Shown here: positions 50,923 through 53,404 of the stretch, piece by piece
How positions within the stretch are numbered: position 1 is the stretch's first letter
Layout: each line of letters opens with the position of its first letter
Assembly: GCA_918797485.1 (NCBI GenBank)
Contig: CAKKNE010000003.1
Location: 2,914,001 to 2,978,000, forward strand
DNA length: 64,000 nt
Source of the DNA: Pelagomonas calceolata
Lineage: Eukaryota; Sar; Pelagophyceae; Pelagomonadales; Pelagomonadaceae
Direction: 5' to 3'
Notes under the pieces: model-generated
Databases searched by the model: none
The model's input: only the letters and a program-made list of their open reading frames with translations
Told to the model about the DNA's origin: nothing
Position numbers and translations under genes: made by a program

Positions 50923-53404
<2,482 letters not shown>

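What the first reader, a model, noticed from the sequence alone, without database searches (positions are those of the whole stretch)
53375..53404. MAGDIS-like hexapeptide uORF in front of AdoMet decarboxylase
A six-codon uORF, MSADIK, ends nine bases before the AdoMetDC ATG. Seen: length, position, and Met1/Asp4/Ile5. Known: mammalian AdoMetDC has the uORF MAGDIS, in which Asp-Ile drives polyamine-dependent ribosome stalling. Inference: the same control exists in this distant lineage, by common descent or convergence.
Basis: partly seen in the sequence, partly recalled or inferred. Interest (0 to 1): 0.85.

Follow-up and report, generated by a model that had tools for sequence, protein, structure and literature searches.

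The report
MAGDIS-like uORF before algal AdoMetDC
Just before the gene for a key polyamine-making enzyme, a marine alga carries a six-amino-acid mini-gene that resembles the one mammals use to shut this enzyme off when polyamines are plentiful, hinting that the same ribosome-jamming control works far outside animals, though this is not yet tested.

Summary
Observation confirmed, coordinates corrected: MSADIK* lies at 53376-53396 and a full-length AdoMetDC (387 aa, TIGR00535 above cut-off) starts 8 nt later. Met-x-x-Asp-Ile-x-stop is rare: 13 pattern matches on both strands of the 32.4 Mb genome, ours included. Of 11 others inspected, none lies within 200 nt before a same-strand ATG ORF of 60 aa or more. 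Simulated 369-nt leaders give it in about 3 of 100,000. The uAUG context is weak, the main AUG strong, and the preceding 329 nt hold no ATG.

Best reading: a MAGDIS-type polyamine-feedback uORF with unusual geometry, because a ribosome stalled at its stop should cover the main AUG. Transcription, stalling and conservation were not testable here; the collections open to me are viral and prokaryotic and gave no relative with a leader. Position 6 is Lys, not Ser. A 5-bp palindrome could produce the same letters. Common descent versus convergence is undecided. Probably a new member of a known kind, in a stramenopile (organism inferred).

The parts
53376..53396 (+). six-codon uORF ATGTCTGCGGACATCAAATAA, MSADIK*; Asp4-Ile5 as in MAGDIS
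   Evidence: 13 pattern matches on both strands of 32.4 Mb
53397..53404 (+). 8-nt spacer CGGCCAGC between uORF stop and main ATG
53405..54568 (+). AdoMetDC (S-adenosylmethionine decarboxylase proenzyme), single ORF, 387 aa, with the YVLSESS and KTCG stretches shared with the human enzyme
   Evidence: PF01536 E 3.5e-91; TIGR00535 above cut-off; 38% identical to the human fragment compared
53047..53375 (+). putative leader/promoter stretch of 329 nt without any ATG on the + strand
   Evidence: ATG positions 53044, 53376, 53405
53376..53389 (+). inverted repeat ATGTC-TGCG-GACAT overlapping the uORF: a 5-bp stem with a cUGCGg loop that contains the uAUG
   Evidence: -4.5 kcal/mol; larger leader fold z -1.10; 17 such palindromic sites in the genome

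Best explanation
MSADIK is a MAGDIS-type regulatory uORF of the alga's only detected AdoMetDC gene. Ribosomes scan from the cap and meet the uAUG first. It is in a weak context (T at -3, T at +4), so some initiate and some leak past to the strong AdoMetDC AUG (A at -3, G at +4). When spermidine is high, ribosomes that have made MSADIK stall at the UAA with Asp4-Ile5 near the peptidyl-transferase centre. Because the stop ends only 8 nt before the main AUG, the stalled 80S would cover that AUG and hold up following scanning subunits, so AdoMetDC synthesis falls. When polyamines drop, termination is fast and leaky scanning supplies the enzyme. Shown here: the ORF, its rarity, spacing, start contexts, the enzyme's identity and the presence of pathway genes. 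Inferred: transcription across the uORF, its translation, polyamine-dependent stalling and steric occlusion.
For: Exact six-codon length, Asp4-Ile5, and position directly before the one AdoMetDC gene detected. 13 genome-wide pattern matches; 0 of 11 others inspected lie within 200 nt before a same-strand ATG ORF of 60 aa or more, against 8 nt here. About 3e-5 by simulation for the strict form and 4-5e-4 for the loose form. Weak uAUG and strong main AUG (context rules recalled); no other ATG in the 329 nt upstream. No plant-type long ATG uORF in the 369 nt examined. Pathway genes: an ODC-like gene (best solved relatives are ODCs), three strong PF01564 spermidine-synthase-like matches, deoxyhypusine synthase. 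For mammals, papers state that MAGDIS stalls ribosomes at the uORF stop at high polyamine and blocks the main ORF (PMC4505036; PMC13025110; passages seen). A paper reports from its authors' earlier work that MAGDIS put into a plant viral leader inhibits translation downstream (PMC2241666, passage), so the peptide may act on non-animal ribosomes.
Against: No TSS, RNA or ribosome data; the mRNA could start downstream of 53376. No conservation test: no usable relative was found. Position 6 is Lys with UAA, not Ser. In mammals the uORF is described as close to the mRNA 5' end (PMC13025110), whereas here it is next to the main AUG. Close uATGs are common in this window (10 of 33). The uORF letters also form a palindrome. 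Antizyme was not found above its cut-off. In NCBIfam the ODC-like domain piece scores best, below cut-off, with lysA.
Confidence: 0.65

Rival explanations
1. Functional but sequence-independent uORF: the short uORF lowers AdoMetDC translation simply by capturing scanning ribosomes (poor reinitiation over 8 nt), and the Asp-Ile is coincidence.
For: Close uATGs occur in 10 of 33 mechanical ORFs of the window; an 8-nt gap should allow little reinitiation (general knowledge).
Against: MxxDIx* is expected in about 3e-5 of such leaders, and the gene is the one where this peptide is known to act in mammals (PMC4505036).
Confidence: 0.12
2. Chance or untranslated sequence: the ATG lies upstream of, or too near, the cap, or in a spliced segment, and the six codons mean nothing.
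Against: Rarity in window, simulations and genome and placement next to AdoMetDC. A leader shorter than 29 nt would be needed to exclude the uAUG from an unspliced mRNA.
Confidence: 0.15
3. RNA hairpin or DNA palindrome: ATGTC-TGCG-GACAT is kept as a stable cUNCGg-type stem-loop or a protein-binding palindrome; ATG, Asp4 and most of Ile5 follow from the palindrome itself.
For: Perfect 5-bp inverted repeat, -4.5 kcal/mol, uAUG predicted mostly paired; the palindrome is commoner in the genome than its reversed control (17 sites against 5).
Against: The surrounding fold is not unusual (z -1.10, 28 of 200 shuffles as good). Of the 17 palindrome sites only this one is among the MxxDIx* matches. Any GAC-ATx after ATG pairs 3 bp, and Ser TCN at codon 2 supplies the rest. 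A palindrome would not explain the stop at codon 7.
Confidence: 0.08

Closest known systems
Mammalian AMD1/AdoMetDC uORF MAGDIS (polyamine-responsive hexapeptide uORF)
   Same: Six codons; Met1, Asp4, Ile5; upstream of the AdoMetDC main ORF
   Different: Ser2-Ala3 and Lys6 instead of Ala2-Gly3 and Ser6; 8 nt from the main AUG, whereas the mammalian uORF is described as close to the mRNA 5' end (PMC13025110, passage); host is a stramenopile alga (inferred); no functional data
Plant AdoMetDC overlapping uORF pair
   Same: Polyamine-linked uORF control of the same enzyme (PMC6504692, passage)
   Different: No overlapping pair and no long ATG uORF in the 369 nt examined; the plant group is reported as far as green algae (PMC2075485, passage)
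Other polyamine-sensing nascent-peptide systems (antizyme inhibitor uORF, fungal antizyme frameshift peptide)
   Same: Nascent peptide plus polyamine alters ribosome progress to close a feedback loop (PMC11900008; PMC4505036; passages)
   Different: Different peptide, length and genes

Membership tests
MAGDIS-type AdoMetDC uORF | Lies upstream of an AdoMetDC main ORF | tested here: met
   PF01536 and TIGR00535 above cut-offs; 8 nt spacing
MAGDIS-type AdoMetDC uORF | Six codons with Asp4-Ile5 | tested here: met
   MSADIK*. That Asp4 and Ile5 are the critical residues is recalled (Mize 1998, not read)
MAGDIS-type AdoMetDC uORF | Ser6 as last residue | tested here: not met
   Lys6. Whether position 6 is strictly defining is not established here
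MAGDIS-type AdoMetDC uORF | uORF is in the mature mRNA and translated | not testable with these tools
   no RNA or ribosome data held
MAGDIS-type AdoMetDC uORF | polyamine-dependent ribosome stall at the uORF stop | not testable with these tools
   needs toeprint or ribosome profiling
MAGDIS-type AdoMetDC uORF | peptide conserved in relatives | tested here: inconclusive
   viral and prokaryotic collections gave no relative with a leader; L003 is only a fragment
Plant-type AdoMetDC uORF pair | two overlapping uORFs, one of them long | tested here: not met
   only ATG ORFs MLLHQAN (53044) and MSADIK (53376) in 53036-53404

The most novel reading that the evidence does not exclude
The Met-x-x-Asp-Ile-x-stop polyamine sensor is not an animal invention. 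It either goes back to the common ancestor of animals and stramenopiles, as one of the oldest arrest peptides, or was reinvented because the eukaryotic ribosome's tunnel makes Asp-Ile at a stop codon a ready-made spermidine sensor. Here it acts in a compact form in which the stalled ribosome sits on the main start codon.
Probability: 0.45. Interest if true: 0.8.

Novelty: new member of a known kind. Interest (0 to 1): 0.55.

Why it matters
[quoted passage not shown] organism inferred). It would also give a natural variant (Ser-Ala in place of Ala-Gly, Lys in place of Ser, spacing of 8 nt) that tests which residues sense polyamine. Comparing the uORF across stramenopiles would separate common descent from convergence.

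Tried and rejected
Conservation: protein-guided scans of viral contigs and genome contigs gave one locus, L003. It is a 135-base AdoMetDC piece at the end of an otherwise bacterial-looking MAG contig, without a leader, so it is useless for the uORF. A degenerate DNA pattern of uORF plus main start found nothing in viral contigs. These collections are viral and prokaryotic, so the blank says little.

Antizyme: one match below the cut-off (18.7 bits, cut-off 24.2). It overlaps longer mechanical ORFs on the other strand of L002, so I do not count it; a frameshifted or split gene could be missed.

MLADIG* twice in the genome with third-position-only differences looked like a conserved second case. 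Neither lies within 200 nt before an ORF of 60 aa or more, and the ORF lists around them differ; I did not align their flanks. Taken as chance.

ORF proximity control: of 13 pattern matches, ours is one. One other (C3:3247442) has a stop at codon 2 and was not fetched. 11 were fetched and none has a same-strand ATG ORF of 60 aa or more starting 0-200 nt after its stop (the nearest were +202, nested within the span of a longer ORF, and +228). The control uses first-ATG ORFs and would miss genes with short first exons.

RNA structure as the main explanation: weak support.

Literature: nine searches. The key review (Ivanov, Atkins and Michael 2010) and Dever and Ivanov 2018 are not held, so priority cannot be excluded. 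Two P. calceolata expression papers have no occurrence of polyamine, spermidine or decarboxylase in the text held.

Full report
What is there. At 53376-53396 the + strand reads ATG TCT GCG GAC ATC AAA TAA (MSADIK*), followed by CGGCCAGC and the ATG of a 387-aa ORF ending with TAG at 54566-54568. The ORF is an AdoMetDC: PF01536 at 3.5e-91, TIGR00535 at 258.6 bits against a cut-off of 233.15, 38% identical to a human fragment and 36% to a potato fragment. It keeps the YVLSESS and KTCG stretches seen in the human fragment. It is the only PF01536 match found in the genome. The in-frame stop at 53357 and the lack of an in-frame ATG between it and 53405 fix the start, unless a 5' intron exists.

Which organism. 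G000 has 32,445,274 bases in 8 contigs. The Pelagomonas calceolata paper reports six nuclear contigs of 32.4 Mb plus one plastid and one mitochondrial contig (PMC9481584, passages). The identification is my inference from that agreement.

Is it more than chance. The pattern Met-x-x-Asp-Ile-x-stop has 7 TAR matches and 6 TGA matches on both strands of the genome, one of them with an internal stop. The window has one match where 0.02 are expected. In simulated 369-nt leaders the strict form appears in 13 of 400,000 and 11 of 400,000, and a looser form in 205 and 174 of 400,000. Of the 12 other matches I fetched 11; none has a same-strand ATG ORF of 60 aa or more starting within 200 nt after its stop, whereas AdoMetDC starts 8 nt after ours.

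Anatomy. The uAUG has T at -3 and T at +4; the main AUG has A at -3 and G at +4 (context rules recalled). There is no other ATG between 53047 and 53375. The only other ATG ORF in 53036-53404 is MLLHQAN at 53044, so the plant overlapping arrangement is absent from that stretch. With the stop in the A site, an 80S protecting about 15-17 nt beyond the P site (recalled) would reach over 53405-53407. This geometry differs from the mammalian one, in which the uORF lies close to the 5' end and the paused ribosome is said to block preinitiation complexes (PMC13025110, passages).

Pathway. Two PF02784 matches were found. One is ODC-like: its best solved relatives are ornithine decarboxylases, 1.5e-48, though in NCBIfam, which is built for prokaryotes, the piece scores best with lysA, below cut-off. 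The other is a diaminopimelate decarboxylase by its best match. PF01564 has five matches over its cut-off, three of them strong; the pieces tested resemble spermidine synthases but, being partial, do not reach the speE cut-off. Deoxyhypusine synthase is present (3.1e-119). Polyamine metabolism is therefore likely. Antizyme was not detected above its cut-off.

What speaks against. There is no transcript, ribosome or conservation evidence. Position 6 is Lys instead of Ser. The letters ATGTC-TGCG-GACAT form a perfect 5-bp inverted repeat, which by itself yields Met, Asp4 and most Ile5 codons; it occurs at 17 places in the genome against 5 for the reversed control. Close uATGs are ordinary here: 10 of 33 mechanical ORFs of 300 aa or more have one within 50 nt (not all 33 are genes, some overlap).

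Literature. Passages state that the mammalian AdoMetDC leader encodes MAGDIS, which stalls ribosomes at or near the stop codon when polyamines rise (PMC4505036; PMC11900008; PMC13025110; PMC10659439; PMC6504692). Plant-type AdoMetDC uORFs are reported as far as green algae (PMC2075485, passage). Earlier work cited in PMC2241666 (passage) found that MAGDIS placed in a plant viral leader inhibits downstream translation. In the titles, abstract starts and passages that I saw, none describes a MAGDIS-like uORF in stramenopiles (searches), but the review most likely to do so is not held.

Verdict. Observation confirmed; regulatory reading likely but untested; origin undecided. Probably a new member of a known kind, with unusual spacing.

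Noticed in passing
L003:3001-3135: A bacterial (Rhodospirillales) MAG contig ends in a piece of eukaryotic-type AdoMetDC, 62% identical over 45 residues: most likely a chimeric contig or eukaryotic contamination.
   Followed up: partly
G000:C3:3046822-3046842 (+) and G000:C5:1443231-1443251 (-): Two six-codon ORFs encode the same peptide MLADIG* and differ only at third codon positions; the ORF lists around them differ and show no close downstream start; probably chance.
   Followed up: partly
window 50923-52917 (-): Divergently placed neighbour: two ORFs, the upstream one matching Amino_oxidase PF01593, may be one carotenoid-desaturase-like gene (name recalled) split by an intron or frame change.
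   Followed up: no
window 54977-56110 (-): Convergent actin gene, single ORF of 377 aa, directly downstream of AdoMetDC.
   Followed up: no
G000:C2:4319443-4319598: Weak antizyme-family match (18.7 bits, cut-off 24.2), overlapping longer ORFs on the other strand; not convincing.
   Followed up: partly
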